Origin: Cloeon dipterum
Taxonomy: Eukaryota > Arthropoda > Insecta > Ephemeroptera > Baetidae
Direction of reading: 5' to 3'
Length of the DNA stretch: 64,000 nucleotides
Assembly (NCBI RefSeq): GCF_949628265.1
Contig: NC_088789.1
Span: 682,001 to 746,000 of the forward strand
Part shown: positions 1-18,135 of the stretch, in pieces
Numbering within the stretch: position 1 is the first letter of the stretch
Layout of the letters: each line of letters opens with the position of its first letter
The notes under the pieces: model-generated
The model's input: the letters and a program-made list of their open reading frames with translations, nothing else
Told to the model about the DNA's origin: nothing
Databases searched by the model: none
Made by a program: the position numbers and the translations under genes

Positions 1-1004
1 AAAGGGTTGTAGACAATTATTGAGATAAATATTGAGGTAGGCACTTTGGAATATTAATGTGTTTGAGTGTGATATGAATTCTCGGAACAGACGGAAACTT
101 AACGGAAAATCAACGGAAATTTCTGAATTAATTAAAATACGTCGAGTATTCTAATGTTTGTGAAAGAAACTTGACGCCTGACTTGTTGGGTCGAAATGGC
201 AATAAAACTTGGGTAATATGACGCTAATGTCTTGTCGGGGGGGTCTAATCGAAATGTGAGTGTACTTACAAGAGAACAAGGAAGATAATGGATTCCATGT
301 GTGTCCCGGTTGTCAGCGAATTAGGGTGGGAAAGCAGCGCTGAGGGGTGCTCAGCGCCCAAGTCGGCTGGTGTTCGGTTTCTCAAAATGACAGATTTATG
401 TCGCGGCCAATATACATGTCACGGGGTGACGAGAGAAACAACCTGCTGCTTCGTGTAGCGGGTGTAGAACAAGAGCCCCGAGGCGTCGGGATCCCCCCTC
501 TTTATACCCAAGTCCCGCCCGTGTGCACGCGTGTCTAGACATGACGCCCCATAACTCTGGCGGGTTTTTGACGTTTTGGTCCATTTGCTACTGTTTTTTG
601 TCTATGATTGCGACATCAACGCCTCTTTTCGGAGGGGGACGACTGACATGATTTAATGGGAGGTGGCCCTCGCCACCTTGAAATGACCCGCTCTTCATCA
701 TGTCTGACAGCTACGATGGCGTCGAGAGGGGTCGTTGTCCGTGCCCGATGGCACGTGCAGCGATGCACCTCTGTCAGCCGTGTCGCTTGCTCGCTTTTAG
801 GCAATCGCTCTTGTATCTACTCGGTTGGCTCGGCTCCGTGAGTGAGCGATCACAAGATTGATTTTAGTAATTCGCAAGTTGTGGTTGGCAAGAGTGACGT
901 CACGCTATGTGCACGCAAACAGGGGGGCTGGAGCAAAAGGGGGGCTGGTGCTTGAAAGAGCACAAAATGAATTATAAAAATGTAGCTCATGCAGTGAGTC
1001 TACA
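1..1004 (-). repeat. 3' LTR of the giant retroelement (partial, cut by window start)
   Basis: Matches 16610-17613 at an offset of 16609 with no difference that I could see. Identity stops after TCTACA at 1004, so in element orientation the LTR opens with TGTAGAC. Being 3' it would supply the polyadenylation site, which lies beyond the window. In element orientation the internal sequence next to it has a short G-rich run (about 1011-1016 on this strand) as the only candidate polypurine tract, and it is not a clean one. Confidence 0.93.
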
Positions 1005-2248
1005 TAAATGGACCCCCGTGGATTGTGATATTGGCCCGGACAATATCATTAAATAAACTGGATCACCCAATAAGAACTAAAAGAACACACAATAGAATAA
1101 ACGCAAAGAAAGACGAACCGAAGTACGTATATTAAGGTAAGAAGGGGCGCAAAAATGAAAAAAGAAACGAAAGAATGGTAACCCAAATGTTAAACCGATC
1201 AGGAAAACAGGAAAGAAAACGATAGACATCAAACCAAACATGAAGACAACTAAACTAAAGTAGCCACTCTGGCTGATATTTTAGGACCGAAACATTAAAA
1301 TTAAAGGAAAACGAACAACGCATGGAATAATTAAAAGGGAACGACAACGACCAATGTTGGTCGGGAGTTAGTAAGAAACGCGGCACGCAGGGTTAGTGGT
1401 CCTAAAATAAGGTAAAAATAAAAGAAAGGTGGATATAAGCGCGAGATTTTCCCGTGGGGTAGGAAAGCGAAAAATTCGCCGGCCCTGACTGTAAGAAAGA
1501 CAGGGGGCAGTGATGAGGCCCTTTGACATTTGTTAAACCAAGAACTAAAACTAGGGAGCCAGCGCGGCGCGCGTGACGACTCGTGAGGTCTGAATCCTCC
1601 ATTAAAATTATGGCGAACCCGCGGTTCCGATTAGGTGTATGTGTGGTGTAAGGCCGTGCCTTGACAAACATAAAAGGGGAGCAAACATGGTGCATAAGGG
1701 ACGAATCACAGTTGTGCGACGAGCATAAAATGAGACATAATACAACGAAAATAATAGTACGAAATATCGAGCATGTTGGAAAATGTAAACTGGTGTTACA
1801 ACGTAAAATAATAGCGTTCCACGTACGTGCAAAATTTCACAGAAATGTATCCGGTTATCGTCAATGGAATTATGATGAAATAAAACGACAATGATGAAAT
1901 ACAAGAATTAGTAAAAGTCAAACTTAACTCTATGTTAGGGGCACACTCTAGAAACAAAACTAAATTGAACAAAAAACGAATCACAATACAGGCTAGGGGG
2001 TTAAATTATATAACCTTATCTAAGCTACAGGTAAAAGAAACACCTAATTTAAACAGATTTGAGCCGAACGTCTAAAAAGGGTGTAATGCGGCTTGAAAAT
2101 TATGCTACTTGCTAACGGAAAACGGAACATATATACAATAAAATGTAAATTCGCTTGCCAGAGAAGTTTATGAAACGATGCATAATTACAGAGTTATCTC
2201 CCTGAGAACGCCAGGACTGAAATGCTATCTGTACAAGGATTGGATTAT
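1005..2248. other. Non-coding 3' region of the retroelement
   Basis: About 1.24 kb between the ORF5 stop and the 3' LTR. AT-rich with many short A runs. ORFs are under 100 codons, overlap each other and show no motifs. I see no gene. Confidence 0.5.
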
Positions 2249-3970
2249 TTAGTAGTTGCGTGGTTGGTTATAAAATGCACAACTTAACGCGTTCGCGAGC
2301 GCCGGGTCGCGATAATCGTTAGGGAGGAGAAGCAAGTATTTAGCGACGCACAGGACCTCTGGTGAGAATAGCATGATCGCCAGAGTGGGTCGGGGGGTCA
2401 AATTACCAGCCTCGACTATCATGGGGCTCAGGAAGGAACAGGGCCTGAAGGCCGGTGTACCGTTTGCATTATATAGAATGGGGAAGACATCATGGACGGG
2501 AACCCTTGTCTCACGTACAAAACACGTTGTCAGACCGTGTGTGTGTTTCGTACAGTCGATAAGTTTCGTTGTCAGCCATCGCAACTCCAGATGGGTCAAC
2601 AGTTCAAAAGATGGTCCCTGGTGGAGCCGATGTTGCAGGCGCTCGAGGGTCCTCTGGATGACAACCGCCATGGCCGCTTGTACCGGAATTTCTGGATTGA
2701 GAAGCCGATGCTGGCGGCCCAGCGATCGGACGGCCGTCCACACCACTCGTATTGGTGGTGGAGCGAACTCTGGCTCGCAGCGCAGAGTCCGCAGCAGATC
2801 ATGTGTCCCGTGGTCCCGTGTGAGTCGGACCGCCGCCTGGGCCGGGTTTTCGTCCGCATGACAATAACCCATGAGGAAGGTATATATTTCGAGGGCCTTA
2901 GTGTACGTCAAAGGGCCCTCGTCCTCTGGATCTACCAAGAATTGGTTTGCCAGTTGGAGGAAACCGCAGGCGAAGGTTGACGGGAGTGGGCCGAACTCCG
3001 GGATCGTGAAGTCAGCTGGGGCCGGCGAGAGGCGGTGCTGCAACACCGGTTGAAGGGGGTGCTCCACAATCCTTAATTGGTCCGCGCGCTCGAACTCTAG
3101 GGTGTTTTGAACGGCCTGGGTCAACCCAGGGCTAAGGGTCATCTGTGGCGGCACTCGAAGCGGAGGACCCATGAAAACGGTTTGGCTGTTGTACGTAGCC
3201 ATGGCCACTGAATACGCGATGGTTTTGAGAGTGCAAAGTCGTCTTCGCACAACCCGGGACCCTTCAGCGAAAGGGAAGTCCCGTCCTGATTTATCGAAAA
3301 GAGATGAGGCCATTATCGCCTCCCATGACCTGGCGGTGTCAAGTTCCCGCCGTTTTCGAGGATGAAGATGAAAATCCTCGTTAAATATGTTGGTCGCCGA
3401 GTTATCCAGGTAGAGGCGGGCCAGGTGACGTGGTTGATATCCCCTGGCGTATTTTTTCTGTACTGCCAATTGTTGTCCGTAAGGGTTTCTTCCCCTTTTC
3501 GGTCGGCCTCTATTGGATCTCTTTCGGGGAGGCGGTGGCCGTTGAAGTGAAGGAGACGGGGGGACCGGTGCGGGTGGCAAACAGGCTACCTGATTTGAGG
3601 TTGATGGTGCGCCAAAGATGGCCACCTGTGTGGAGGTTGATGGCGCGTCAAATACGGCCACCTGTGTGGAGGTTGATGGCGCGTCAAATTCGGCCATCTG
3701 TGTTGAGGTTGACGGAGCGCTTAAGGCGGCCGCTAGCGCCGATGTGGGGGGTGTGCGAAGGGCGGCCTGCGATACCCGACCATCAGCGTCGAAGAGGCTT
3801 GGCAGGCGCTCGTTGGATGGACCCGCTCGAGAAAAGGGTGGTCTGCTGGGCGACGAGGGCTCAGGCTCCACCTTCAGGACGAGGGTGATGGCCTCCACGA
3901 TGTCCATGGCAGGAGGGGATGCGGGCGTCGTAGGAGGGGCGGCAGGTGGAGACCAATGGTTGTCGTCCAT
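2249..3970 (-). CDS. Fifth ORF of the retroelement: basic, proline-rich protein of unknown function
   Basis: 573 codons from the ATG at 3970. The frame also opens at 4027, but those 19 codons are read through a poly(A) leader. Residues about 1-150 are proline/serine-rich and hold four 12-residue repeats of the type APSTSTQVA. A basic segment follows (PPPPRKRSNRGRPKR), like a nuclear localisation or nucleic-acid binding patch. The C-terminal 400 residues look globular and helical, with cysteines and no membrane segment. I recognise no family. Its position between env and the 3' LTR is where retroviruses and large errantivirus-like elements carry accessory genes. Complete and uninterrupted, so probably under selection. 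Confidence 0.75.
   Translation of the reverse strand: MDDNHWSPPAAPPTTPASPPAMDIVEAITLVLKVEPEPSSPSRPPFSRAGPSNERLPSLFDADGRVSQAALRTPPTSALAAALSAPSTSTQMAEFDAPSTSTQVAVFDAPSTSTQVAIFGAPSTSNQVACLPPAPVPPSPSLQRPPPPRKRSNRGRPKRGRNPYGQQLAVQKKYARGYQPRHLARLYLDNSATNIFNEDFHLHPRKRRELDTARSWEAIMASSLFDKSGRDFPFAEGSRVVRRRLCTLKTIAYSVAMATYNSQTVFMGPPLRVPPQMTLSPGLTQAVQNTLEFERADQLRIVEHPLQPVLQHRLSPAPADFTIPEFGPLPSTFACGFLQLANQFLVDPEDEGPLTYTKALEIYTFLMGYCHADENPAQAAVRLTRDHGTHDLLRTLRCEPEFAPPPIRVVWTAVRSLGRQHRLLNPEIPVQAAMAVVIQRTLERLQHRLHQGPSFELLTHLELRWLTTKLIDCTKHTHGLTTCFVRETRVPVHDVFPILYNANGTPAFRPCSFLSPMIVEAGNLTPRPTLAIMLFSPEVLCVAKYLLLLPNDYRDPALANALSCAFYNQPRNY
3577..3726 (-). repeat. 36-bp in-frame tandem repeat in the fifth ORF
   Basis: Four units near 3601, 3637, 3673 and 3709, each encoding APST(S)xQ plus five variable residues. 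Period 36 bp keeps the reading frame. Confidence 0.85.
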
Positions 3971-3998
3971 TTTTTTTTTTTTTTGTGTTTTTTTTTTT
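3970..3998 (-). other. Double poly(A) leader abutting the ORF5 start codon
   Basis: On the minus strand an 11-A run, CAC, then a 14-A run touch the ATG at 3970 directly. No splice acceptor is evident next to it. Could be a replication slippage tract or an A-rich leader affecting translation. Confidence 0.6.
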
Positions 3999-4027
3999 GT
4001 ATTCTGTTTGGGTTTATGGACACGCAC

Positions 4028-4648
4028 TCGAAATGTTGGAGGGAATGACAGTCATAAAATTGGGGTAACTTCCAATGAAATAGATAGCAATTCAATCTCT
4101 CAAAAGGAATGTGGCAAGCGAACGAGAAGGGGAGAGAAAAGAAAAGCCTACTGTGGCGGTTGTTGTTGATGTTGTGTGTCTGCGCCTGCGGTTACTTCTT
4201 AGCAAAGAAAGTGATGACCTTGCCTCTCCGGGACGGGGTGCCGGGAGAGAGCGAGTGGCTGACGCAACGGGTGGTCAGCAGCGCTTTGTCAGGATCGTTG
4301 CAAGACCTTCTTGCTTGTATGGTTAATCTGGAAGAATAGAAAGAAATTTTAGCTATACACATATCAGAGTAGGCTTCACGAGTGCCTGTTAACACTTGCA
4401 TTTGAGAAATCTTGGCTACATGAAGGCTGAACATAAGTTAAGCAGGGTGGATTTGGTAGTTTCTGATGCATATTTGCATCGGAATGAAATGATAGAAAGT
4501 TTGACATGAAAGCTTGGCTTTTCCTTGAAGAAAAGGAGAACGCGTGCCTGGGAGAAATAAAAAAAAAAGGAAAATAATAAAAGGGGGTAAACACGAGTAG
4601 ATCTGAACGCACGAGCAAAAGGAAAGAATTATGTCGGGAGGTTGGAAC
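4028..4648. other. Gap between env 2 and ORF5
   Basis: Only short overlapping ORFs on both strands with no recognisable motif. Any splice site for an ORF5 RNA would lie here; I see no single convincing one. Confidence 0.4.
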
Positions 4649-6410
4649 TTAGACTGATCTCTCAGGTAGAATGCTAACTGCGTAATGTTGGACAATATCG
4701 CTTGAGTTACTCACCGTACAGCTGATATTGCGCGTGGCTGCTTCTGACGAGGGTTGTGGGGCTAATAAGGGCGAGGGTGGACGGCCGTGGTTATAAGCAC
4801 GACGGGCTCGGGCCTGAGGGGTAATGGCGGGGGGACCGATAAAGATGATTGGTGGGTCAACGAGGGTGTCTTGTCTTTCCCGATTTTGTCGCCAACACCA
4901 GTGAGTTAATAAGTGGGGGATACTTACTGCGAAGAGACACAGGCAAAAAATAAAACAAGCGAGCAGGGCGATGTTGGGCAAGCCTCGCCCCGCCTTCTTT
5001 TCCTTGGGCCTAGATTCCAGGAATCGAGGGGAAAACGGGGATAATGTCAAACTTGTCTCTCGGATTTTGCTGCAATTAAGAGAAATATTAAAATATTTCA
5101 GAAATACCCGTCCATACCCTTGGACCTCGCAACCTGCGGGAGGGTCAATACACCCGGCATTAGAGGATGTTTGAAGGGTTGAGGTTAGATTAGGAGTCGA
5201 GCAGGCCAATGTATAATTCAGAATTGTGTTGTGAGAGAACAATGCTTTGGTCCCGAATTTTATCACGTTGGGGAGTTTGGGCGAATCAATTAGTTTGCAA
5301 AACGTTTCCGCTCTTTTCCAGTTTTTTACGAAAATCTGACTAAGACAGTGATTATCATGTTTCCTCATTACTTTTAATTTGCTGTAATATGTTGTTGAGT
5401 TGTCAAGTATTTGAAGGTCACGTTTATTGAAGTACACGAACCTGTCATTGATTTGAGAATATGCAAAGAAATCGGGGTTAAAAGAATCTTCTACATCATG
5501 TAGAATTTTCGTGGTGTTTTGAAGTAGCATTGGGTGGAAAAGGGGGAAAAATAGAGTAAATTTTGGACAAGTATTAGTCAGGGATATTATAAAAGTGTGC
5601 CCGATCTCACCGTTAAAATAATTAGTATTGTAGGATTGAAGTCGGGTGTCAAGAAAATTTCGAGGGGGTTTCAGACATTCATAGGATCGCAGAATTCGTA
5701 ATATGGCTTTCTCGCTTCGTTCCTCGTCTAATATTGTTTTCGTGTATTCAGATAATATCGCCGGGAAAATTTGAATTATAGTAAGCAGTTGATTTACCGC
5801 TTTAGTGTAGGCAACTAACAGTGGTTGATGCGTATGATTTGTGGTTGTGGATCCATCTGGATGGACTAGAGAAGCTCGCAAAGTTTGTCCCATGTGGTTA
5901 TTTAAGTAGCTGATGTGTTCCAATGAATCCGATAAACCATATTTTCCAGCCAAATCTACGAAAATCGTTATTGCATCAAGGTCCTGATTCAGAAGGGTTT
6001 GTTCATCTATGCGAATTGCATTCTCGGCGGCCCAGGGGGCTTTGGATAGAGAATTGTTTTCGTATTTTTGTCTTAGCCTCGTTGCTTCTTTGGTTACGGC
6101 AGTGGCTGTTTGATAGACCTCGCCCAATTGCCGTCGAAGGGTAATGTAATGGTGAATAAAATCGCGGATGGCTGGGTTTTGTAAATATGAATAAATCATC
6201 TGGTGAATCTCCCTGACCTTTTCCGTTATAGTTTTTCCGGCCAGCTCGAGTGTATTTAAATCGTATACATATGTAACGGTAACTGGTGATGACAACCTAA
6301 CCGTGCCAATTTCAGCAAAGGTAACGCCCTCTGGGTTCAATGAATAAGCGGTTTCAGTGCCAGAAGTCCAAGGGAAAACTACCAGCAGGCCTAATGCGAT
6401 CCCTCGCCTG
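4649..6410 (-). CDS. Env 2: second env-like membrane glycoprotein
   Basis: Open from a 3' splice site (TTTCAG ending at 6411) to the stop at 4649. There is no in-frame ATG at the N-terminus; the first leucine codon at 6340 is not a convincing start. The first codons after the acceptor encode a basic residue pair followed by a hydrophobic run typical of a signal peptide, so the start codon should come from an upstream exon. The ectodomain has several NXS/T sites and cysteines, a membrane segment near residues 456-478 of the ORF (from 6340), and an 85-residue proline/arginine-rich tail. Its N-terminal layout resembles Env 1 (a GTV... stretch, a VT strand, then D-L-x-x-L helices), but the RXXR site and LFGT motif are absent. 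I infer a diverged env paralogue that cannot fuse membranes by the same mechanism. Confidence 0.75.
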
Positions 6411-6536
6411 CTGAAATCAAAAATAAATGACTCTATCGTAAATGAAAATTCCTCGTGTGTTGTTTGATTGGCTTATGGAAGGTTTGTGGCTACATGGGTG
6501 ATTTATGTGTGTTGAGTGTGTTTGCCTTCATCGCTA

Positions 6537-8289
6537 CTAAGCCTTTTGTATGACAGGACGCTTGGACCGTAACCATTGAATAAAGCACATGAGAACGGCT
6601 GACGCAATTAGTATAACATACGTCTTCCAGTTATTCAATTTTTCCCACCAATAGGCAATTTCTTGCAAATAGAGTCTGATTCTTTGATGCTGGAGTTCTC
6701 CATAAATTTCGTCGATGCTCAAAATTTTCTTTTTACGTAATTGTTTCTGGATGGATTCTAATAAATTTTCTGCTCTAGTGGAATATTGGCTTAATATGGG
6801 TTTTAGAAAATTACTGTAATTGAACCTATTTGCCGTAATAATGGGGGCCTGATCTAGGGGTATGGCGGTGTAATTATAAACCTTTGTATATGTTGGTGTA
6901 ATCAACGAGTTGAACAGTTGTACTTTACATCCATTTTTAACCTTGAGGATACCGGTTCCTTTGATATGGAAATTAGATTGCTGATTTCTTTTCAAACATT
7001 CAATGGCAATGTCTTGACCGGTATTATTCAGCGAATATGCCCAATACGCCACCTCGGCATTTCCCATTATTTTAGTCATAAAATAATTTACTTCAGTAAA
7101 TAGCGCTACTGGGCATAGGGGGAGAACGTCGCTCACTTTATTTTGAAATAAGGCGAGCTGACAGGTAGTAGGCGGGGCGAGTTGTAGAGGAGTGGAGGGG
7201 CTACAGATGATGGGTATTTGTCGAACGCAATCTCTTTTGAATTGTTCCTCTGTTATGGCCCAATAATAATTATTGTTAAACCCGACGGCCAGCAGGGTTT
7301 GCTCAAAATTATATTTTAAGGTGACCGTGGGAAGGGTGGATAGCTCAAAGGGCATAGGTATCAATTTGTATAGGCGAAAAGTATCAGCGATTTTCAGAAT
7401 GGGCATGGTAGCGAAAATTCTAAAACCCTTACGGAGGGGGATGATTGTTTGTATAGTTAACAGACTATAATATTTGTAGAGCTCATTTTTGGGATCGAAC
7501 ATGAATTTGAAATCATTATGTTGCTGAAACTCCACGTTAAAGTTGTGAATGAGTTCTCTCAGAATAGAGGGAGACAACAATTGTGCGCTAACACTTTTAG
7601 CTTTAATTTTTGTGAGGATTAGCTCGGCATTTATGATATCAAGCAATAATCGCTGAGAAGCAGCATTATAATTGTCCTTCAATTCGTTGATTGCTAATTG
7701 AATGGCTAAACCAGCTGTAAATGAAATTTTTTCTCTAAATTGCATTATAGCTGATTGGGCGTGGGAAACGCTTAAGTCCACGTATGCAGTTAGGTTGTTA
7801 ATCATATGAACCAGTACCTGTTGGTTTAAATTTCCGTCACGGATCTTGCTATGAAGCTCATGAAATTGATCCTCGGTGGCTGTCCCGAATAGGAGACCTA
7901 ACACTTGCCCTACTACCGGCATTAGCGCCCTTTCTTCGCGAAGGAAAGTATTAATCTGTGTGGCGCTTTCAAGGAGGGCATTTAATTTGGTCTGGAGAGA
8001 TTTCTGTTTTTGGTGTATGTCGCCAGTTGCTGTTTCTAATTGAGCTTTGGCCTCATTGTACAGTGTAGTATTGTCAATTTCGTGTTGATTTAGCGCCTGA
8101 CTAATTTCTTGCAGTTCTTCTGCTGTACTATCATTAATCTGAGTGAAAGTATCTTTTAAACGGTCTAGCTTCCAATCTAAAGCGATAGTTACGTGCGCAC
8201 TGGCCACGTGCATATTATCTATGGGTACTATAACAGTACCCTGGTTAATCGAGGGTTCCATTCTGTGGTAGCCATGGATCCTCGAGATC
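6537..8289 (-). CDS. env: Env 1: class-I-like fusion glycoprotein of the errantivirus/baculovirus-F type
   Basis: The ORF is 574 codons from the ATG at 8261, and the frame is open back to a good 3' splice site (TTTTGTTTTAG ending at 8290). As in other insect env genes, a spliced RNA with an upstream start and signal peptide is likely; none is encoded here. A furin-type RXXR site (REER, residues 108-111 of the ORF) is followed by a hydrophobic stretch and then LFGTATED, matching the fusion-peptide region of baculovirus F and gypsy-type Env. Next come heptad-rich helices, a cysteine-containing middle, a membrane anchor near residues 547-563 and a short basic tail. Role inferred: envelope protein for membrane fusion. 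It is uninterrupted. Confidence 0.85.
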
Positions 8290-8650
8290 CTAAAACAAAA
8301 ATATATCCATTGAGAGTGAAAGTCCGTCTGATGAAGCCCGTATTTAATTGTATCAATGCCTGAAAGATAGCCGTGAATGTGTTTTGTTTGTATGTGGTGA
8401 AGCTGAATGAAAGTCTCTCTTCTCTTGGAGGTTGTTTAGCTGAATTCCTCATGAAATCTGAATTGATGAAATTATGCGTAATCGGATTCCCGATTTGTCT
8501 CGTATTTTGAAGTCTCTTGAATTTCCCTCACATCTTTACCAGTTTGTTTTGTAGCAGGCCTGCTTTTAAAACTGGGTTTTTAAGAAGTTTGAACTGAAGC
8601 ATGTTGTAAGGGGGTAAGTTGAATCTTTGATTTTCCGCGCAATTTGAAAT
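8290..8650. other. Non-coding stretch between repeat block and env acceptor
   Basis: Contains only short overlapping ORFs without recognisable motifs. Includes the pyrimidine-rich tract leading to the 3' splice site at 8291/8290. Confidence 0.5.
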
Positions 8651-9166
8651 CTGAATTGTATATGAAATACGTGAACTGAATTCTTTCGCATGTTGTGAAA
8701 CCTGAATTGTATCTGAAATTCTTGGACTGAATTTTTCGCACAATGTAAAACCTGACTTGTATCTGAAGTACTGTGAACTGAATTTTGTCAGAAATTTTTC
8801 GCATATCGTAAAACCTGAATTGTATCTGAAATACTGTGAACTGAATTTGTCAGAAATGTTTCGCATATCGTAAAGCCTGAATTGTATCTGAAATACTTGA
8901 ACTGAATTTTGTAAGAAATTTTTCGCATATCGTAAAACCTGAATTGTATCTGAAATACTCGAACTGAATTTGTCAGAAATGTTTCGCCTATCGTAAAGCC
9001 TGAATTGTATCTGAAATACTTGAACTGAATTTTGTAAGAAATTTTTCGCATATCGTAAAACCTGAATTGTATCTGAAATACTCGAACTGAATTTGTCAGA
9101 AATGTTTCGCCTATCGTAAAGCCTGAATTGTATCTGAAATACTTGAACTGAATTTTGTAAGAAATT
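8651..9166. repeat. 62-bp tandem repeat block between pol and env
   Basis: About nine units beginning with cctgaattgtatctgaa start near 8651, 8701, 8751, 8814, 8876, 8938, 8999, 9061 and 9122. Spacing is 61-63 bp in the regular part. Alternate units match best, giving a 123-bp higher-order period. Minus-strand ORFs run through it but shift frame between units and show only repeat-derived peptides, so I do not call a gene. It lies just downstream of the pol stop and upstream of the env splice acceptor. Confidence 0.9.
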
Positions 9167-9253
9167 TGGAACATTGAAGTCGTGAATTCACAGTGTATAA
9201 ACCTTAAAAATATTAAAATGACACGGCTGTCTCGGAAACTCTGAATTTGGCAA

Positions 9254-12200
9254 TTATTGATATCTTTCAGGACGCTTAATCTTAGTTCTATCTCGAAGGC
9301 CTTCACGCCGGGGTGGGTTCTGATTGTCGAAAATCTTTTTCCATATCTTGAGTTCATTATGTAAATTTCGTTCGTTTTCAGATTCGTCGGATAGGGCAAG
9401 CTCTGTATGCGCAGAACTTTTATCTTCCTCCTCCGCAGAATCCGGACTTTCCTTAGGCAATGGATTTGCTTTTTCATACATTTCTCGTTTCTCATTCATG
9501 ATAGTGAGATTGGCCGATATAGTTTCGGCACTTTGACTAGAAATTTTCTTTGGCGAATGTGACTGCTCGGAGTCGGAATCAGTTTGATTGCTCGGAGAGG
9601 CTGTAACAGAGCCGGTCTCGCTTGATGAATGAGCTGTCTCGACAGGCACCCATGTTTTACTTGAATTTGAAAAACAATTGCACGAACGGTTGGATCTTTT
9701 CTTCTCAGTTTTGCATTTCGCTGACTTGGATTTGTTGTTTTTCTTTTTCCTTACCAACTGTAATTTCGGTTTGATCTGACCCACAAATGGCTTGATTTTA
9801 TCTATGTGAGTCCGCACCACATTATTTAAATGCGGGCTTTCGAGGTAAATCGTACGATCTCTTTTTATAGCCACGACCCGAAATGGGCCAGCCATGACTT
9901 TGTGATATTTCAATCCTCTTTTCATTAACCTGTCGGAACAGTCAAACCACACGTATTGATTGACATTGAATTGGCGTCTTTTAGCGTGTTTGTTGAAAAG
10001 CCGCGTGGCCTTTTCGGCATATTTCTGTGTGTTCTTATGATACTGTTTTTTGGTGGCATGAACGCGGTTGTGCAATTTGGTTAGAAAATCCGCTTCGCCG
10101 TACTCTGGCTCAGGTTGTTGTGCAAAAAAGGAGAGCATAGGAAATCTGAAAGATGTGTAGTGTTCCAGAAAGTAGGGGGTAAATCCAGTGGCTGCATTTA
10201 CCGTGGCCGCGTGCACCGCATTCGCTATTTGCAAAATGATTTCCCAGTTATTATCCTTCAGCTCTTCCAGCGCGCCGCAAACAGTATAGAATGTGGTTTT
10301 AAAAGTGCGCTCCTGAATTCCGGCACCTCGTTTAGAATAAGGTACTATGAAAGTGGGCGTCGCCCCCATTAATCTACATAGACTGCGAAATAATTCGGCT
10401 TTCAGTTGCGCGCCGTTATCCATGCGCAGTCGGCTCACAGTTCCATATTTCAAAAAATGTTCGAGCAAAATTTTGGCCACGTCTTCCGCTGTTATTCTGG
10501 CTAAGGGATATGAGCTGATCCGTCTAGAATGTAAATTTAGCACGTTGACATAGTAGCGATTTCCCGATTCGCTGAGCGGGAGAGGACCGCAAATGTCTAA
10601 AGCGGCGGCTTCTGAAATATCCTGTGGATAATAAGCTGCGTCCATGGGGTATCGTGGAATAACGGTTTTCCTGCGGCTGCACACATGGCACGTTTTTACA
10701 AAGGCTTCCGCCTCACGTTGCATCCCTGGCCAGTAATAAAAACGCCTAACTACCGTGTATAATCGCTCCGCGCCTGTGTGAGGTATCATTACTGGAATAT
10801 AATGAAAGGCGTAAAAGATGTGTCTCCGCAGGGTTGGTGGGACAATTATGGCATCAGTATTATGCAGAGCATCTGCTTTTCGATAAAGAAGGCCGTTTGC
10901 CTTAAAATAAATTTCATTAGCTTTCACTTCAGATGCTAATTTTTCTGTCAGCTCGATTAGGGCAGGGTCGCGTTCTTGTTCTGCCTGTAGTAAATCCTCA
11001 GATATGTAGGGTAGATATTCTGGAATGTTTGGATCTTCATAATTTTCGTGCATATTTTTGAATTTATCAGGAACGACAGCGCGTACGCGGCGAGATAACA
11101 GATCTGCGAAAATATTGTCTTTTCCTGGGATATGTTGGAAAGTTAAAGAGAATTCGCTGAGATAAAGGACATATTTCGCGACTCGGGGATTAATTTTCTT
11201 GGATGTGGCCAGGAAAATTAAACTTTTGTGATCGGTCAAGATAACGATCTTTTGTCCCTTAATGATCCGTTCAAATTTTTTCAAGGAATAATACACAGCG
11301 AACAATTCCAATTGATAAATCGACAAGAACTTCTTCCCCATTTTGATACGAGTGGATGCAAAGGCTATTGGGTGAAGTTTGTCGTTTAGCATTTGCAAAA
11401 GTACGCCTGACGCGAAGCGCGTCGAGGCGTCACATGCTAGGTAAAATGTCTCGCCAAAATTAGGGTGTATGGTAATGGGTTTGGAAGCCAAGGCGTTTCG
11501 TAATCTCTCAAATCCATCCTGGCATTCCTGGGTCCATATGAAAGGTTGGTTCTTTTTGGTCAATTGTAATAATGGTTCTGCATATTCCATGTAGCGTGGA
11601 ATTAATTCCATATAATATCCTGTGAGACCTAGGAAACTCTTAATCAGCTTCACTGATTTAGGAGGGTCGAGAGTTAGCATTTTGTCCACCTTGCGGGGGT
11701 CACAGGTTAGCCCTCTGTTGGATACCTGGTAACCTAGGAAAATTAATTCCTTTTTTGCCAATTCCACCTTTTCTATGCCGAGCTTGATTTTGTGCTTCAA
11801 TGTGACCCGTAAAAATTTACGCGTTAACTCTAAGTGATCTTCTGGATCTTTTGAATGCAGAACAATATCGTCGGCATACAGAATGAGCGATTTTGTTTGA
11901 ATTAATTCGTCATAAATTGGGTAAAGAGCTTCCGCTAAATGACTCGGAGATACGGCTAGTCCGAAAGGCAGCCTGTTGTACACATATCGTTGTGTTTCAA
12001 CGGTAATTGCCAAAAGCTCTTGCGACTCTGGATGAATGGGGATGCGATGAAAAGCGGCGGAAATGTCAAATGAGCTGAACAATGCGCTGCCGTGAAAATG
12101 CGACAGGGCTTCAGCTACGGAGGCGGTCAGAGAAAATCGCTCTCTTATTATGTTATTCAAACACCTGAAATCAACTACCATCCGCACCTTTTCTTTGTTG

Positions 12201-14007
12201 CCTGCTTTGGTTCGAACCAGAAAATATGGCGAATTGTATTTCGTGCTCTTGGTGGGCTGCAAAATTCCTTTGTCAATCATTAATTGCACTTGTTCCTTCA
12301 CCTGGGCTCGCGATCGTTCGTCAAGCCTAAACTGTTTGATAAAAACTGGTTTGTCGGATTCCACAGTGAATTTTACTTCAGGAGTTTCCATAATAGTTTC
12401 ATCCTGTTCGCCAAAATAGAAGCATTCGTGAAATTCTTGAAATATTTCAGCATATCCGGACCGAAAAGGTTCGGGCATGCTTGAAATTTTGAATTTGGTC
12501 ATGAGAATCTGAACACGCTCTTGAGGAGTGAACTGAATGTCAATGTTTTTTGCAAACTCGAAGTTTTCTGAATCTTCTATAACGGAGTAGGCTCGTCGCG
12601 CGCGGCCGATTATATCTCCGGCGTGTATGTGCGCCGTTTCGCCGCCATAGTTAATAACGCACACAGGCAAGACGCGCCCCTTTTTGATATATGAGACGCT
12701 CTCTGGTAAGTGAATCGCTGCTCTGGTGTCGGGCTCTAGCAGCATGGAGTCGCGCAAGTGCAAATGAACATTCTCACTTAAGTATGTATTGATAATGCGA
12801 CTACTTAGTGAGTTAATAGAATAATTTTTCGCGCTGTACACTTCGCTACTTGTGTCGAGGGAGAAATTTTCTGAGTCGACATTTTCGAGTTTGCGCTGAC
12901 ATTCGGTGCAATTCAAACTTAAATTAAGATTGCTGGAAGAAACGCCACTACTCGGGCTTAATGATCGGCAATTCGGGATCTTTGTTTGGAGCATTGCGTT
13001 GATATGATTTTGATTTGCAATTCCTTTGTCGTTGTTCTGCAGAGGTGTTATCTGTACGGATGACCCTCGTTGCAGGAAAGCAATTTGACCTTGTTTAGTG
13101 GCTGTCATTGTCTGCGGCCTAATTTCTTCCACGCGAGAAAAAATTTGGTGAGGAGAGACACTGGTGATCGGCCGGCAAATCGGAGCGTCCACGCGGTGGC
13201 CCTGCCCGCGGTTTATTATGCGCACTTGCGGAGGAGTACTGGGCGAAAATAAAGTGGATGTGTCTAATTCAGTATCCATTTCCTGCTGCCACATCTTTAG
13301 CACTAAGTCGAGCGTAGGTAACTGCTCTTGTACCTCCTGCTGTTGTTTTTGTATAAAGGCTTGTTGATTTGCTAACCATACATTTACTTTGTCTGGAGGG
13401 CCTTGGACCCCGGTCTCGTTGCCTATCAACGAGTGGACTTCTGTCTGATTGCGACGTTTTACTACTGCTGGGTAAATTGCATTATGCGTTACGAATTCAG
13501 CGGGTAAAATATAATTTTGCCATTCGATGCGTCGTTGGCCGAAATTAATTTTGAGTTTAAGCTGACTTGCGAATTCTGCTCCTATCAAACCGTATGTAAC
13601 AGGGGAGCCTTCTTTCATTACTGTGAAATTTACAAAATTAATGAAAGTGCCCCATTTAACCAATAATAAGATATCACCTTCTAATTCTAATTTCTTGCCT
13701 GTTAGTTCAGACAAAGGCTGCGAAGGACGCAATTTGCCTCTTGCTGATTTGGGCAAAAATCCGTAGGGAATTAATGCTACTAAACTTGCTCCTGTGTCAA
13801 GAGCGAATTGCCCGGTAATGACATTGTTTTCATGAAAAATTTGCATATTGAGATATATTCCGGAACCGCGATGTTCTATCCTTGTAAGTTCCGTAGCATT
13901 GTAATTTTCTTCTCGGGTCCCTACAGAGTTAGGCACCATTCGGACGCTTCCGGCGGCGTTTGGCCCATTGCGGGCCTGGCAAGGCCCGCCGGGCCCTCCC
14001 CGTTTTT
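9254..14007 (-). CDS. pol: Pol polyprotein: protease, reverse transcriptase, RNase H, integrase
   Basis: The longest ORF here, with its first ATG at 13939 and an open frame back to the slippery site, so it is probably made as Gag-Pol. Visible in order, counted from 13939: aspartic protease motif LDTGAS (residues about 47-52); reverse transcriptase with the YADDIV catalytic box (about 688); RNase H with DAST (about 834) and LTDHKS; integrase HHCC zinc finger (about 1055-1090); then the DDE core with aspartates at DICGPL and MDNGAQ and glutamate at GIQERTF (about 1113-1210); a GPF-type module (AGPFRVV) near 1310; and a serine/lysine-rich tail. All catalytic residues are present, so the enzyme looks intact. 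The tail overlaps no other gene. Confidence 0.95.
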
Positions 14008-15840
14008 TGGAGGCTCACCTTGGCATGCAGCAGGCGGCTGACGTACCATGTTCACTTTGCGCGTGTTCTCCGTGTTTGGCACATTATCATGTCGCAACAG
14101 CCCTGTAGGATTTTGAGATTGAATCGGGGGATTATTGCTGGAGACATTTCCTGCCAGATTGGTTGGCGGATATGTATTAGGTTGGTGCGGAGGCTGCTGG
14201 GGCTGTTGTTGGGGCTGCGGAGGCCGTTGCTGTTGCTGCTGCTGCTGTTGACCTTGTTGATTGTTATTTTTCTGTTTTTCTGCTTCCCATTTTCGACAGA
14301 CTCGGTGGAGGTGCCCTTTCACTCCGCAGTAGTGACACGCTGAAGTTTTATGAGGGCAATAATATCGGCGATGGCCCGTGGATCCGCATCCAAAACATGC
14401 ATCAACGCGAGGAAAAGCGTTAGCGTCACCCCTTCCTGCATTGTTATTACCCTGTTTGTTAAATCTCGGTGGAAGCGGCTCAGGCGGCGTTATTTGTTGC
14501 TGCTGCTCTCGCCATTGTAACTCAGTAACTCGATCTTCTTGATACACCCGATCCTGCTGAGTTCGCAAGTGAGGTGCTTGGTAGAATCTTCCGTAATTGC
14601 TCTCATAATGGGCCCCCTGTGGAGCAACGTCCCTTCTTTCAGCGTTGAAAAGCACATGTGTGGCTACTTGGGCGGGATTCGAATGCCCTAGGGTGACAAA
14701 ATTCACATCCGGCGTGGGCTCATGGGTTATCATCTGGGTCACAGCTTGCACTTTGCGTTTGTCAACGACCTTAGGCAGGAATTCATGGTTATGAGGGTCC
14801 ACGCTATTGTTTAGCAATTGCTGCCGCTGCTTCAAAGCGGCTTCTTCTCTTTTGGCCAGCCGTACCGCGTCCTCGAATGTCTTTGGCTGATTGTGCCGGA
14901 CGAAAGTTGCAAGTTCTGGGGTTAATCCAGTAATGAATACCCCGCGGGCATGCTGCATTACAATATGCTGGTAATTTTCCTTTTCCTTACCGGCCACATC
15001 AGGAGGAATTGACGCTAGTGCGGCTACAAGCACGCGCTGAGCAAAATCATCTACGCTCTCAGTGTGTTTCATGCGCAAATTCATTAACTCTTGATAAGAT
15101 AACATTACGTCAGACGGGGGGGAATATTTTTCCAGCATTTTCTGCTTGAATTTGTCGTAATTGGTTTCATGAATTAACCCGGTGTAGCGCACAAAAGCGA
15201 GCGCCTTGTCGCGTAACCGAGTGTGCGCGACCATTAATTTTACATCAGGAGAAACTCCGTAAAATTTGGCCATTCGATCCAAGGTGTTAAAGAAGTCAGT
15301 GATATGATATTGTTCAGTGTGTCCAGGAAAACTCTGGACTACATGAGTTAAGGTGCCAAGTGCACGCGACTCGCTCCCACTCAGGGGCCGTTTCTTGCCA
15401 TCGTCCGGCAGTGCTGGTGTATCCGAATTATTTTCACTTTCGGGTTTTTCGCCGTTTTCGGCATCATCGTAGGAAGAGCTTGAACTGTGCTCTGCAGCTT
15501 CTGTTGGTTTTCCCGTAGGCTCGGTATCTGACCTTTCGCCTTTTTCCGACTTCAGTCCTCCTGACAGAAAACGTTTGGCTTTGATCCTTTTCCGCGAGTT
15601 GGATCTGCGCGCGTGGTTACCGCCTTCAAATTGAATTGACATTTTCTTTACGTATTCGGTCATTTGCTCCATTTGTTTGGACAAATTGGAATTTTCTCGC
15701 CGTAATCGGTCTTGTTCGTGATGCATATTTTCAATTTCCTTAACCAGATCTTCTGAATTAAGATCTTTCTCGTCTCCCGCGGACTTATTAGCCGCATGAT
15801 TTAGATCCGAATCGCTACCTGAGAAACCCGATGTCGCCAT
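13921..15840 (-). CDS. gag: Gag polyprotein of the giant retroelement
   Basis: 639 codons from the ATG at 15840. The frame is open 31 codons further upstream to another ATG at 15933, but the context (MATSGFSG) and the leader position favour 15840. The N-terminal third is polar with a coiled-coil-like stretch (about residues 40-75) and a basic patch. The middle resembles a retrotransposon capsid domain (about residues 165-340). The C-terminal part has a polyglutamine/proline run and two zinc knuckles of the form CX2CX4HX4C (CFGCGSTGHRRYYC and CHYCGVKGHLHRVC), which bind genomic RNA. Gag forms the particle. It ends 19 bp inside pol, and a slippery site lies 81 bp before its stop codon. Confidence 0.93.
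   Translation of the reverse strand: MATSGFSGSDSDLNHAANKSAGDEKDLNSEDLVKEIENMHHEQDRLRRENSNLSKQMEQMTEYVKKMSIQFEGGNHARRSNSRKRIKAKRFLSGGLKSEKGERSDTEPTGKPTEAAEHSSSSSYDDAENGEKPESENNSDTPALPDDGKKRPLSGSESRALGTLTHVVQSFPGHTEQYHITDFFNTLDRMAKFYGVSPDVKLMVAHTRLRDKALAFVRYTGLIHETNYDKFKQKMLEKYSPPSDVMLSYQELMNLRMKHTESVDDFAQRVLVAALASIPPDVAGKEKENYQHIVMQHARGVFITGLTPELATFVRHNQPKTFEDAVRLAKREEAALKQRQQLLNNSVDPHNHEFLPKVVDKRKVQAVTQMITHEPTPDVNFVTLGHSNPAQVATHVLFNAERRDVAPQGAHYESNYGRFYQAPHLRTQQDRVYQEDRVTELQWREQQQQITPPEPLPPRFNKQGNNNAGRGDANAFPRVDACFGCGSTGHRRYYCPHKTSACHYCGVKGHLHRVCRKWEAEKQKNNNQQGQQQQQQQQRPPQPQQQPQQPPHQPNTYPPTNLAGNVSSNNPPIQSQNPTGLLRHDNVPNTENTRKVNMVRQPPAACQGEPPKNGEGPAGLARPAMGQTPPEASEWCLTL
13970..14008 (-). promoter_or_regulatory. 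-1 ribosomal frameshift signal (gag to pol)
   Basis: On the minus strand the heptamer A AAA AAC (14008-14002) sits exactly in the gag reading frame as X XXY YYZ. It is followed after 12 nt by a perfect 8-bp GC-rich hairpin, GCGGGCCT / AGGCCCGC (13989-13982 with 13977-13970) with a 4-nt loop. The pol frame is -1 relative to gag and is open from the heptamer through to the first pol ATG. This is the classic retroviral arrangement. Confidence 0.85.
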
Positions 15841-16609
15841 CGTGATATATCTCAATTGCTCACTTAAATTAGTTAATGTAATTTTTACTCTGTAGAAAGA
15901 AATATTTCGACACGTTCTGATAACGAGTTGCAATCCTTTCCAAATTCACCAGTTTAAATTCCAGTTCCCCATAAGGGATGCCATAAAAATACACTATGTA
16001 GCCTCGCTCAAGGTGTTGATAGAGCGAATAAATTACACAGCAGATTTTGAGTTTGAGTTCGGGGTGTACTGGAAGGACTGGCGAACAAGGGAGAGAAAGA
16101 AGCAACTCACCGTGTGTGTGTGTGTGTCACGAAATCGGTTCGGCTGGACTCGGCGGTCACTCGCTCAGCGCGGCAGCTTCGACAGGCCAGGCCCGAGGGG
16201 GGTGCTGACGGCACGGCTCTCCCTTTCTTCCTTGGTGCGGAGATATGAACTCTCGCTACTCTCTCAGCGGGTGTCTTTAGAATATTTCTTTCTGATTCTG
16301 ATAACTCTCTTTTGGCCGATTAACTTTCCTCGCCTGAATGGGAAAGCACTTTTACTTTAAATTGGCCGTCCTGTGAGACTTCAGCACTAGTCTTCCACGC
16401 ATTAAATGGGAAAACACATTTACGTTAAACTTATCAATTTCGTTTAATTCCAAATTTGAGCAGAATGGAGATATATCGGCGGGACAGAAACGAACGAATT
16501 AGCGTTTACAAACTTTGGAAAAATGGTTTATTTCACATAAACTATTCGAGCGATACAGTAATATTTTAAGAATATGCAGAACTAGACAACTGAGAAATGG
16601 CGATTATGG
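15841..16609. other. Rest of 5' LTR plus gag leader
   Basis: No convincing gene. Contains a short (GT)n run near 16112-16126 and the AATAAA noted above. The primer-binding site must lie here, but I could not match any tRNA 3' end with confidence. Confidence 0.5.
16527..16532 (-). terminator. Candidate LTR polyadenylation signal
   Basis: AATAAA on the minus strand about 580 bp downstream of the LTR TATA box. It falls just left of the minimum LTR, in the part whose partner copy is outside the window, so it fits R/U5 only if the LTR extends further left, as I infer. Confidence 0.4.
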
Positions 16610-17109
16610 AAAGGGTTGTAGACAATTATTGAGATAAATATTGAGGTAGGCACTTTGGAATATTAATGTGTTTGAGTGTGATATGAATTCTCGGAACAGA
16701 CGGAAACTTAACGGAAAATCAACGGAAATTTCTGAATTAATTAAAATACGTCGAGTATTCTAATGTTTGTGAAAGAAACTTGACGCCTGACTTGTTGGGT
16801 CGAAATGGCAATAAAACTTGGGTAATATGACGCTAATGTCTTGTCGGGGGGGTCTAATCGAAATGTGAGTGTACTTACAAGAGAACAAGGAAGATAATGG
16901 ATTCCATGTGTGTCCCGGTTGTCAGCGAATTAGGGTGGGAAAGCAGCGCTGAGGGGTGCTCAGCGCCCAAGTCGGCTGGTGTTCGGTTTCTCAAAATGAC
17001 AGATTTATGTCGCGGCCAATATACATGTCACGGGGTGACGAGAGAAACAACCTGCTGCTTCGTGTAGCGGGTGTAGAACAAGAGCCCCGAGGCGTCGGGA
17101 TCCCCCCTC

Positions 17110-17115
17110 TTTATA
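17110..17115 (-). promoter_or_regulatory. TATA box in 5' LTR
   Basis: TATAAA on the minus strand in GC-rich surroundings, with the same site at 501-506 in the other LTR. It is placed to drive the genomic RNA leftward into gag. Start site inferred 25-30 bp downstream, near 17080. Confidence 0.6.
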
Positions 17116-17503
17116 CCCAAGTCCCGCCCGTGTGCACGCGTGTCTAGACATGACGCCCCATAACTCTGGCGGGTTTTTGACGTTTTGGTCCATTTGCTAC
17201 TGTTTTTTGTCTATGATTGCGACATCAACGCCTCTTTTCGGAGGGGGACGACTGACATGATTTAATGGGAGGTGGCCCTCGCCACCTTGAAATGACCCGC
17301 TCTTCATCATGTCTGACAGCTACGATGGCGTCGAGAGGGGTCGTTGTCCGTGCCCGATGGCACGTGCAGCGATGCACCTCTGTCAGCCGTGTCGCTTGCT
17401 CGCTTTTAGGCAATCGCTCTTGTATCTACTCGGTTGGCTCGGCTCCGTGAGTGAGCGATCACAAGATTGATTTTAGTAATTCGCAAGTTGTGGTTGGCAA
17501 GAG

Positions 17504-17511
17504 TGACGTCA
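17504..17511. promoter_or_regulatory. CRE/ATF-type palindrome TGACGTCA in LTR U3
   Basis: A perfect 8-bp palindrome about 390 bp upstream of the LTR TATA box, duplicated at 895-902 in the other LTR. It matches the consensus site of CREB/ATF bZIP factors. Binding is inferred only. Confidence 0.4.
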
Positions 17512-18135
17512 CGCTATGTGCACGCAAACAGGGGGGCTGGAGCAAAAGGGGGGCTGGTGCTTGAAAGAGCACAAAATGAATTATAAAAATGTAGCTCATG
17601 CAGTGAGTCTACACTCGGCTTCCCCGGCGTGCAGCGGCGAAACGTTATGCGACGACAGAGCGACAATGACTCTAGGTCGTGAGGGGCTCTAGCGCAGTAG
17701 CTTGTCAGGGCGACGTGACCCTAAGACATCAGTAGCGCGAGCAGTGAAGGCGAAAGATTCGACTCATAGACCGATTAGCAAAATTTGAAAAGCGTATGTT
17801 GAGCACTCAAGGAATTACATGGCTTCACAAAGGGATTAAAATTACAAACTTGTGGGCAAGAATGCGCGTTAACAATTTAAACAAATTCACGGCGAGTTAA
17901 GAATTACTGGAATCTATCACTGGCTATGAAATGTTCGTTGCGAATGAAATTTGGGAAATGTCACTGGCTCGAAATATAAATTTTACCACATAAAAGTTCT
18001 CTCAAATAATTGTTGAAATATCTGAAGTTGTTGGGCTGCGTTGGAAGGTGGATTCGGAATTTCAGGGCGTGAGGAATGTCATCTTCTCATCTCAAATTTC
18101 CTGAATTTCCGCGTCTATGGGCAAATTTCCGTGCG

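What the first reader, a model, noticed from the sequence alone, without database searches (positions are those of the whole stretch)
1..17613. Retroelement with two env-like genes and a fifth ORF
Seen: five long uninterrupted minus-strand ORFs between LTRs, with gag and pol followed by two separate membrane-glycoprotein ORFs and a soluble, basic ORF. Known: insect errantiviruses and Ty3/gypsy relatives normally carry at most one env and span about 7-9 kb. Inference: this is a structurally complex endogenous retrovirus that duplicated env and gained an accessory gene, more like a complex retrovirus in layout. The best candidate here for an undescribed system.
Basis: partly seen in the sequence, partly recalled or inferred. 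Interest (0 to 1): 0.88.

Follow-up and report, generated by a model that had tools for sequence, protein, structure and literature searches.

The report
Large endogenous retrovirus, two envelope genes
A young, complete 18,224-base endogenous retrovirus, probably of a fly, carries two different envelope-type genes of one family plus a conserved fifth gene of unknown ancestry, where the fly relatives described in the papers looked at carry at most one envelope gene.

Summary
It is one intact insertion of 18,224 bp (611 bp beyond the window), with LTRs of 1,615 and 1,617 bp that differ by no substitution and a 5-bp target duplication. Order: LTR, gag, pol (slippery site at the overlap), tandem repeats, env1, env2, ORF5, LTR. 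A second full-length insertion on C8 has the same order and its own target duplication, so this is no assembly join.

env1 belongs to the baculovirus-F family. env2 also matches an F profile, weakly but above 60 of 60 shuffles, without a recognisable fusion peptide. The two are not detectably sisters, so 'env duplicated' is unproven. ORF5 has no known relative but is under purifying selection (33 synonymous, 12 nonsynonymous changes); its block differs 10-fold more between the two copies than the rest, which suggests recombination. pol is at most 29% identical to the other elements matched.

Not shown: RNA, splicing, infectivity, a signal peptide for env1, a clade name. Verdict: new variant of a known kind.

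The parts
15997..17613 (-). 5' LTR (1,617 bp, TGTAG...CTACA ends); TATA-like box at 17115
   Evidence: Direct repeat, no substitution against the 3' LTR, one 2-bp gap; TATA string
17614..17618 (.). Target-site duplication CTCGG, right copy; left copy just outside the window at C4:681385-681389
15950..15984 (-). Candidate short first exon of subgenomic mRNAs: ATG at 15984, donor-like site after 15950, phase 2
   Evidence: Sequence and phase count; first ATG also present in the C8 and C4:25.12 Mb copies; splicing itself not shown
13921..15840 (-). gag, 639 aa: Ty3-type capsid and CCHC motifs
   Evidence: Pfam Retrotrans_gag 3e-07 and Ty3_capsid 6.1e-07 above cut-off; zf-CCHC below cut-off
14002..14008 (-). 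-1 frameshift slippery heptamer A AAA AAC in gag phase, at the gag/pol overlap
13962..13995 (-). Predicted hairpin downstream of the slippery site
   Evidence: Part of the fold of 13925-14012: -42.1 kcal/mol, z -1.79, 9 of 200 shuffles as good
9254..14014 (-). pol frame, 1586 aa: protease (DTGA motif only), RT (YADD), RNase H, integrase
   Evidence: Pfam RVT_1 2.9e-25, RT_RNaseH_2 5.3e-24, Integrase_H2C2 3e-14, rve 1.7e-07 just under cut-off; Ty3 best in PDB 2.7e-59; motifs
8627..9206 (-). Tandem array of 61/62-bp (123-bp higher-order) units between pol and env1
6537..8261 (-). env1: baculovirus-F-type glycoprotein; frame open to 8435; candidate splice acceptor, first exon base 8289
   Evidence: acceptor
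7881..7940 (-). env1 RxxR cleavage-like site (7929-7940) and fusion-peptide-like stretch (7881-7928)
   Evidence: Aligned with the RQKR site and following stretch of P0001; similar LFGT stretch in L067
4649..6472 (-). env2: second, divergent F-type glycoprotein; candidate acceptor first exon base 6410; signal-peptide-like stretch about 6347-6409 (by eye); membrane anchor 4895-4993
   Evidence: F-profile match over residues 284-460; hydropathy; acceptor
2249..3970 (-). ORF5, 573 aa, basic, no family match; 36-bp repeats at 3597-3720
   Evidence: Purifying selection, 33 synonymous and 12 nonsynonymous; repeats; no Pfam match and no credible PDB relative
3494..3511 (-). AT-hook-like RGRPKR in ORF5 (motif recalled, no library match)
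   Evidence: RGRP core kept in window, C8 and L032 rows; position
1..1004 (-). 3' LTR, part inside the window; continues to C4:681390

Best explanation
A recent, full-length proviral insertion of a Ty3/gypsy (Metaviridae) endogenous retrovirus with a five-gene layout. Gag-Pol is probably made by -1 frameshifting at A AAA AAC. The two envelope genes and ORF5 are probably made from spliced subgenomic RNAs that start in the LTR; a short peptide exon just inside the 5' LTR is in phase with one good acceptor each of env1 and env2 (inferred). env1 is the likely fusogen: F family, RxxR site, fusion-peptide region, membrane anchor. env2 is a second F-family surface glycoprotein that lacks a recognisable fusion peptide and may serve attachment, help in fusion, or superinfection exclusion (inferred). 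ORF5 is a conserved, probably nuclear, nucleic-acid-binding accessory protein (inferred from basic charge and an AT-hook-like motif). Different versions of the element have met and recombined, leaving ORF5 as a swapped block (inferred from the substitution pattern).
For: LTR pair without substitution and 5-bp TSD; second full-length insertion with its own TSD GTATT and identical LTRs (1615 of 1615); env1 and env2 proteins from their searched starts 100% identical in it, ORF5 97%. Pol domains. env1 as F-type: one protein hit, P0001, E 0.03, that carries PF12259, pairwise E 5e-11, F profile built without it 68 bits, E 8.6e-23 among 4 targets, hhalign 86 against shuffles 16.1 +/- 2.5. env2 as F-type: 16 bits, E 6.3e-7 among 4 targets, hhalign 38.7 against 16.4 +/- 2.2, 0 of 60 shuffles reach it, decoys gag and ORF5 negative. 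ORF5 selection between the two full copies (dN/dS 0.12); against old broken copies dN/dS was 0.14-0.35 in the six aligned stretches of over 200 codons, which come from overlapping loci. Divergent block 58/2397 against 33/14327, P 3e-27. Slippery site in phase. Splicing of env to a short peptide exon upstream of gag is published for two subclades of D. melanogaster ERVs (PMC12992720, passages).
Against: No RNA evidence for any transcript. No signal peptide was found for env1: the scan of 17120-8150 listed 4 hydrophobic ATG starts, all inside gag's span, 3 of them sharing one donor-like site, none convincing. The genome search with Pfam's own Baculo_F model (8 matches) did not list env1 or env2, nor did hmmscan. 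env2's F match covers only residues 284-460; an earlier two-sequence profile gave only E 0.07 with 2 of 60 shuffles as good. Both structure models failed (mean pLDDT 35.7 and 29.9). env1 is found in only two, nearly identical insertions. Shorter aligned stretches of ORF5 and env2 in broken copies gave dN/dS up to 0.59, as expected for dead copies. The frameshift hairpin is only moderately better than shuffles. The C8 copy's pol is interrupted by a 56-bp insertion. The block of extra differences could also be gene conversion or a mutation hotspot.
Confidence: 0.68

Rival explanations
1. The 18 kb is a composite: one retroelement nested in, or mis-joined with, another, so that env2 and ORF5 do not belong to it.
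For: Unusual length; nested and inverted pieces of this family do exist at C4:25.11-25.14 Mb.
Against: Single LTR pair and TSD around the whole; no further LTR of the family inside; second insertion with the same order and a different TSD; env2 and ORF5 parts follow each other also in the old C5:0.977-0.979 Mb copy.
Confidence: 0.04
2. env2 is not an envelope but a host-derived or decoy F-like membrane protein, for example a receptor blocker.
For: No RxxR site with a fusion peptide at the expected place; its tree branch is very long (3.98); four open F-like ORFs of 491-653 aa stand elsewhere in this genome, three of them within about 15 kb, so host-side F relatives may exist.
Against: It lies between env1 and ORF5 in both full insertions and shows no specific closeness to those ORFs. 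This rival and an accessory-envelope role are hard to tell apart by sequence.
Confidence: 0.25
3. The two env genes are an in-element tandem duplication.
For: Same family, adjacent, and a shared cysteine spacing found in 21 of 5000 shuffles of env2 (chosen after looking).
Against: No significant direct similarity; the tree joins env1 with P0001 (92/91), not with env2, though long branches make this weak.
Confidence: 0.3
4. ORF5 is a passenger captured from the host, without a role in the element.
For: GC3 0.60 against 0.41-0.47 in the other genes; no known family.
Against: Purifying selection between the two full copies; the six-frame search found it only at 4 loci that also hold env2 sequence.
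Confidence: 0.08

Closest known systems
Errantiviruses / insect endogenous retroviruses (gypsy, ZAM, 17.6, Tirant)
   Same: gag-pol read by frameshift, F-type env related to baculovirus F, env expressed by splicing in the known ones (PMC4276936 and PMC12992720, passages)
   Different: The D. melanogaster lineages with env have it as a third ORF (PMC12992720 passage); here two F-type genes, a fifth ORF and 18.2 kb. pol is 25-29% identical to the other elements matched in this genome
Osvaldo/Ulysses group of Drosophila Ty3/gypsy elements
   Same: Long LTRs and a retrovirus-like layout for Osvaldo (recalled, and the title of the 1999 paper in a reference list)
   Different: No reference sequence was on hand, so membership was not tested
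MDG1-group elements with sORF1/sORF2
   Same: Fly Metaviridae with extra accessory ORFs outside gag-pol (PMC11952523, passages)
   Different: Their accessory ORFs are about 110 aa and upstream of gag; no Envelope
Bdelloid rotifer LTR elements with captured extra ORFs
   Same: Modular capture of env-like and other ORFs (PMC5408684, passages)
   Different: Described as varied ORF3 types; a find of 'two env' in the text gave 0
Baculovirus F / Fb proteins
   Same: env1 and env2 match an F profile; some baculovirus F homologues lack fusion function (recalled)
   Different: Encoded in an LTR retroelement

Membership tests
Ty3/gypsy (Metaviridae) | LTRs, gag with Ty3-type capsid, pol in the order PR-RT-RH-IN | tested here: met
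   protease by the DTGA motif only
Ty3/gypsy (Metaviridae) | Short target-site duplication on integration | tested here: met
   5 bp at 5 of 6 insertion sites examined, the match at the sixth (L017) is partial; the other LTR loci were not examined
Errantivirus / iERV | Third ORF encoding an F-type envelope | tested here: met
   env1:
Errantivirus / iERV | env expressed from a spliced subgenomic RNA | not testable with these tools
   Only in-phase candidate donor and acceptors
Errantivirus / iERV | pol falls in the gypsy/gypsy clade | tested here: inconclusive
   12-row tree without named references: sister to L057/L060 at 81/90 on a long branch; L060's pol is followed by an F-env fragment
   Two F-type genes, 18,224 bp
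Osvaldo/Ulysses group | pol clusters with Osvaldo, Ulysses or Isis | not testable with these tools
Baculo_F family (env1) | Match to PF12259 or to an F profile | tested here: met
   No direct match to Pfam's model; F profile built here without env1 8.6e-23
Baculo_F family (env2) | Match to an F profile above controls | tested here: met
   6.3e-7, 0 of 60 shuffles; residues 284-460 only; no direct match to Pfam's model
Baculo_F family (env2) | Cleavage site and fusion peptide | tested here: not met
   No RxxR site followed by a hydrophobic stretch at the expected place (by eye)
Complex retroviruses | Regulatory/accessory proteins from multiply spliced RNA acting on the LTR or on export | not tested
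   ORF5 is conserved; its function is unknown

The most novel reading that the evidence does not exclude
A complex insect retrovirus: two F-family glycoproteins with divided labour (a cleavable fusogen, env1, and a non-fusogenic partner, env2) plus a nuclear accessory protein, ORF5, that acts on the 1.6-kb LTR or on viral RNA. It would be complexity comparable to lentiviruses or spumaviruses, evolved independently in Metaviridae.
Probability: 0.3. Interest if true: 0.85.

Novelty: new variant of a known kind. Interest (0 to 1): 0.64.

Why it matters
In the passages read, Metaviridae of D. melanogaster are described as gag-pol with or without one F-type env. A young element with two divergent F genes and a selectively maintained fifth gene of no known family shows that an insect retrovirus can carry a complex gene set, gives a natural case for dividing attachment from fusion within one glycoprotein family, and offers an accessory protein whose target could be host control such as the piRNA pathway (speculation). 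The divergent ORF5 block suggests that element variants recombined.

Tried and rejected
Assembly join: rejected (TSDs; second insertion). ORF5 as chance ORF: rejected (0 of 500 shuffles; selection). Database relatives: env2 none of 7552 candidates, ORF5 none of the 7995 scored, env1 one of the 7992 scored; viral contigs none for env1, ORF5, alignment A1, P0001 or pol (env2 and gag were not sought there); Pfam none credible for env1, env2, ORF5; NCBIfam none credible; PDB none credible for the three or for A1 and P0001; gag only weak PDB matches, best E 0.019. Structure prediction of env2 and ORF5: useless confidence, so no fold search was made; the env2 job used an alignment with env1 and P0001, which presumes kinship. 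Signal peptide for env1: not found. Primer-binding site and polypurine tract: looked at by eye, no convincing match, not tested against tRNAs. Clade naming of pol: not possible without references. env1-env2 comparison with a two-sequence profile: inconclusive, superseded. The first ORF5 selection count (36 synonymous, 23 nonsynonymous) included codons upstream of the presumed start, where the two copies' frames differ; one search starts at that ATG.
Full report
WHAT IS THERE. The finding lies on contig C4 of an unnamed 190-Mb genome (window = C4:682001-746000). Five contigs of 33-43 Mb suggest a drosophilid; this is inference, the species was not identified. On the minus strand five long ORFs lie between direct repeats. 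The repeat continues beyond the window start: the LTRs are 1,615 and 1,617 bp, with no substitution between them and one 2-bp gap. They begin TGTAG and end CTACA, and CTCGG stands on both outer sides. The element is C4:681390-699613, 18,224 bp, 611 bp of it left of the window.

GENES. gag matches Retrotrans_gag and Ty3_capsid above Pfam's cut-offs; pol matches RVT_1, RNase H and integrase zinc-binding above the cut-offs, with the integrase core just below. Ty3 is pol's best solved relative (E 2.7e-59). gag and pol overlap in the -1 relation at A AAA AAC in the correct phase, followed by a predicted hairpin (z -1.79, 9 of 200 shuffles as good). Between pol and env1 lies an array of 61/62-bp units.

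ENV1. Pfam, NCBIfam and PDB give nothing credible directly. The large protein search gave one hit among 7992 scored candidates, P0001, E 0.03, which carries PF12259 Baculo_F. Pairwise E is 5e-11, and six cysteines and the RxxR site line up. The same genome holds 8 matches to PF12259; env1 and env2 are not among them. From P0001 and six of these eight I built an F profile without env1: env1 scores 68 bits, E 8.6e-23 among four targets, and hhalign gives 86 against shuffles of 16.1 +/- 2.5. env1 thus belongs to the F family. A puzzle remains: no signal peptide was found.

ENV2. It has a signal-peptide-like stretch that lies upstream of its first ATG (by eye), 11 N-glycosylation motifs in its open frame and one strong membrane anchor. 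The same F profile gives 16 bits, E 6.3e-7 among four targets; hhalign gives 38.7, E 5e-4, probability 31, against shuffles of 16.4 +/- 2.2 with 0 of 60 reaching it; gag and ORF5 are negative. The match covers residues 284-460, the cysteine-rich part. No cleavage site with a fusion peptide is recognisable. A smaller profile had been inconclusive. In a nine-row tree env2 stands alone on a branch of 3.98 and env1 joins P0001 (92/91), with a long-branch warning. So both are F-type, but a recent in-element duplication is not shown.

ORF5. 573 aa from an ATG at 3970, basic, with 36-bp repeats and an AT-hook-like RGRPKR (motif recalled). It has no credible relative in Pfam, NCBIfam, PDB, viral contigs or the protein collection. 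In its own genome it is found only at 4 loci that also hold env2 sequence. Between the window and C8 copies there are 33 synonymous and 12 nonsynonymous changes, dN/dS 0.12, binomial P 2.8e-11. Its GC3 is 0.60 against 0.41-0.47 in the other four genes.

COPIES. LTR search: 19 matches. Internal parts: pol of this family at 3 loci, env1 at 2, env2 at 4, ORF5 at 4; these tool counts are lower bounds, and the gag search did not complete. C8 holds the second full-length insertion: TSD GTATT, LTRs 1615 of 1615 identical, env1 and env2 proteins identical over the searched lengths, pol interrupted by a 56-bp insertion. Solo LTRs L014, L015 and L019 have 5-bp TSDs; L017, also examined, matches only in part and shows none. 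Old, broken copies lie at C4:25.11-25.14 Mb, in part inverted, and at C5:0.977-0.979 Mb. env1 was not found at the two old 3' loci, which are truncated.

RECOMBINATION. Window and C8 copies differ at 58 of 2,397 sites from ORF5 to the end of the env2-ORF5 gap, but at 33 of 14,327 elsewhere, the tandem array (15 of 755) left out (Fisher P 3e-27); the env2 block has 0 differences in 1,888. Mutation after insertion would spread evenly, so the block most likely came by recombination between two lineages, as retroviruses do by template switching; gene conversion is not excluded. Neither copy's ORF5 is consistently the older form: at the differing sites L031 sides with the window copy 25 to 16, L032 with C8 23 to 15.

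EXPRESSION MODEL (inferred). Just inside the 5' LTR an ATG at 15984 opens a 35-nt coding stretch that ends at a donor-like site after 15950 (7 of 9 consensus letters; a stronger one, 8 of 9, lies in the LTR after 16111). Acceptor-like sites before env1 (8289) and env2 (6410) both continue in the phase that this exon needs; for both to fit by chance is about 1 in 9, and other donors and acceptors in other phases were also listed. In D. melanogaster ERVs env is spliced to a short peptide exon upstream of gag in two subclades (PMC12992720, passages). No RNA was seen.

RELATION TO KNOWN ELEMENTS. The 26 other matches among the 30 scored pol matches are 25-29% identical (30 of 207 candidates were scored). 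In a tree with 11 of them the pol is sister to L057/L060 at 81/90 on a branch of 1.6, and L060's pol is followed by an F-env fragment (L071); in 1.25 kb beyond that fragment no minus-strand ORF over 80 aa and no match to env2 or ORF5 was seen. So the nearest kin seems to be an F-env element, but the support is modest and clade names need references that were not held.

NOVELTY. In the listings of seven paper searches and in passages of eight papers (none read whole) I saw no insect LTR element with two env genes; most subscription papers and Repbase are outside this library, so it may already have a name. I call it a new variant of a known kind.

Noticed in passing
L068, L069, L070 (C2:5017724-5032892) and L067 (C2:22771454-22773016): Four long F-type (PF12259) ORFs, three of them within about 15 kb, with signal-peptide-like starts (by eye); they may be host genes derived from envelopes. 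L067 keeps a fusion-peptide-like stretch.
   Followed up: partly
C4:25108973-25137232 (L016, L021, L026, L031, L032, L034, L049, L050): A cluster of broken, nested and inverted pieces of this family, of a kind that could feed piRNAs.
   Followed up: partly
window 8627-9206: Tandem 61/62-bp array between pol and env1; together with the ORF5 block it is the most variable part between the two full copies.
   Followed up: partly
L048 around 4203-4258 (C8): 56-bp insertion that interrupts pol in the C8 copy.
   Followed up: partly
window 41537-42013, minus strand: ORF with a MIR domain (Pfam 3.4e-14), probably an exon of a host gene.
   Followed up: no
window 20378-20523 and 21275-21424: Two 93-96% identical direct-repeat stretches about 900 bp apart outside the element.
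   Followed up: no
window 23305-23493: Inverted repeat with 66-bp arms, 94% complementary, 57 bp apart.
   Followed up: no
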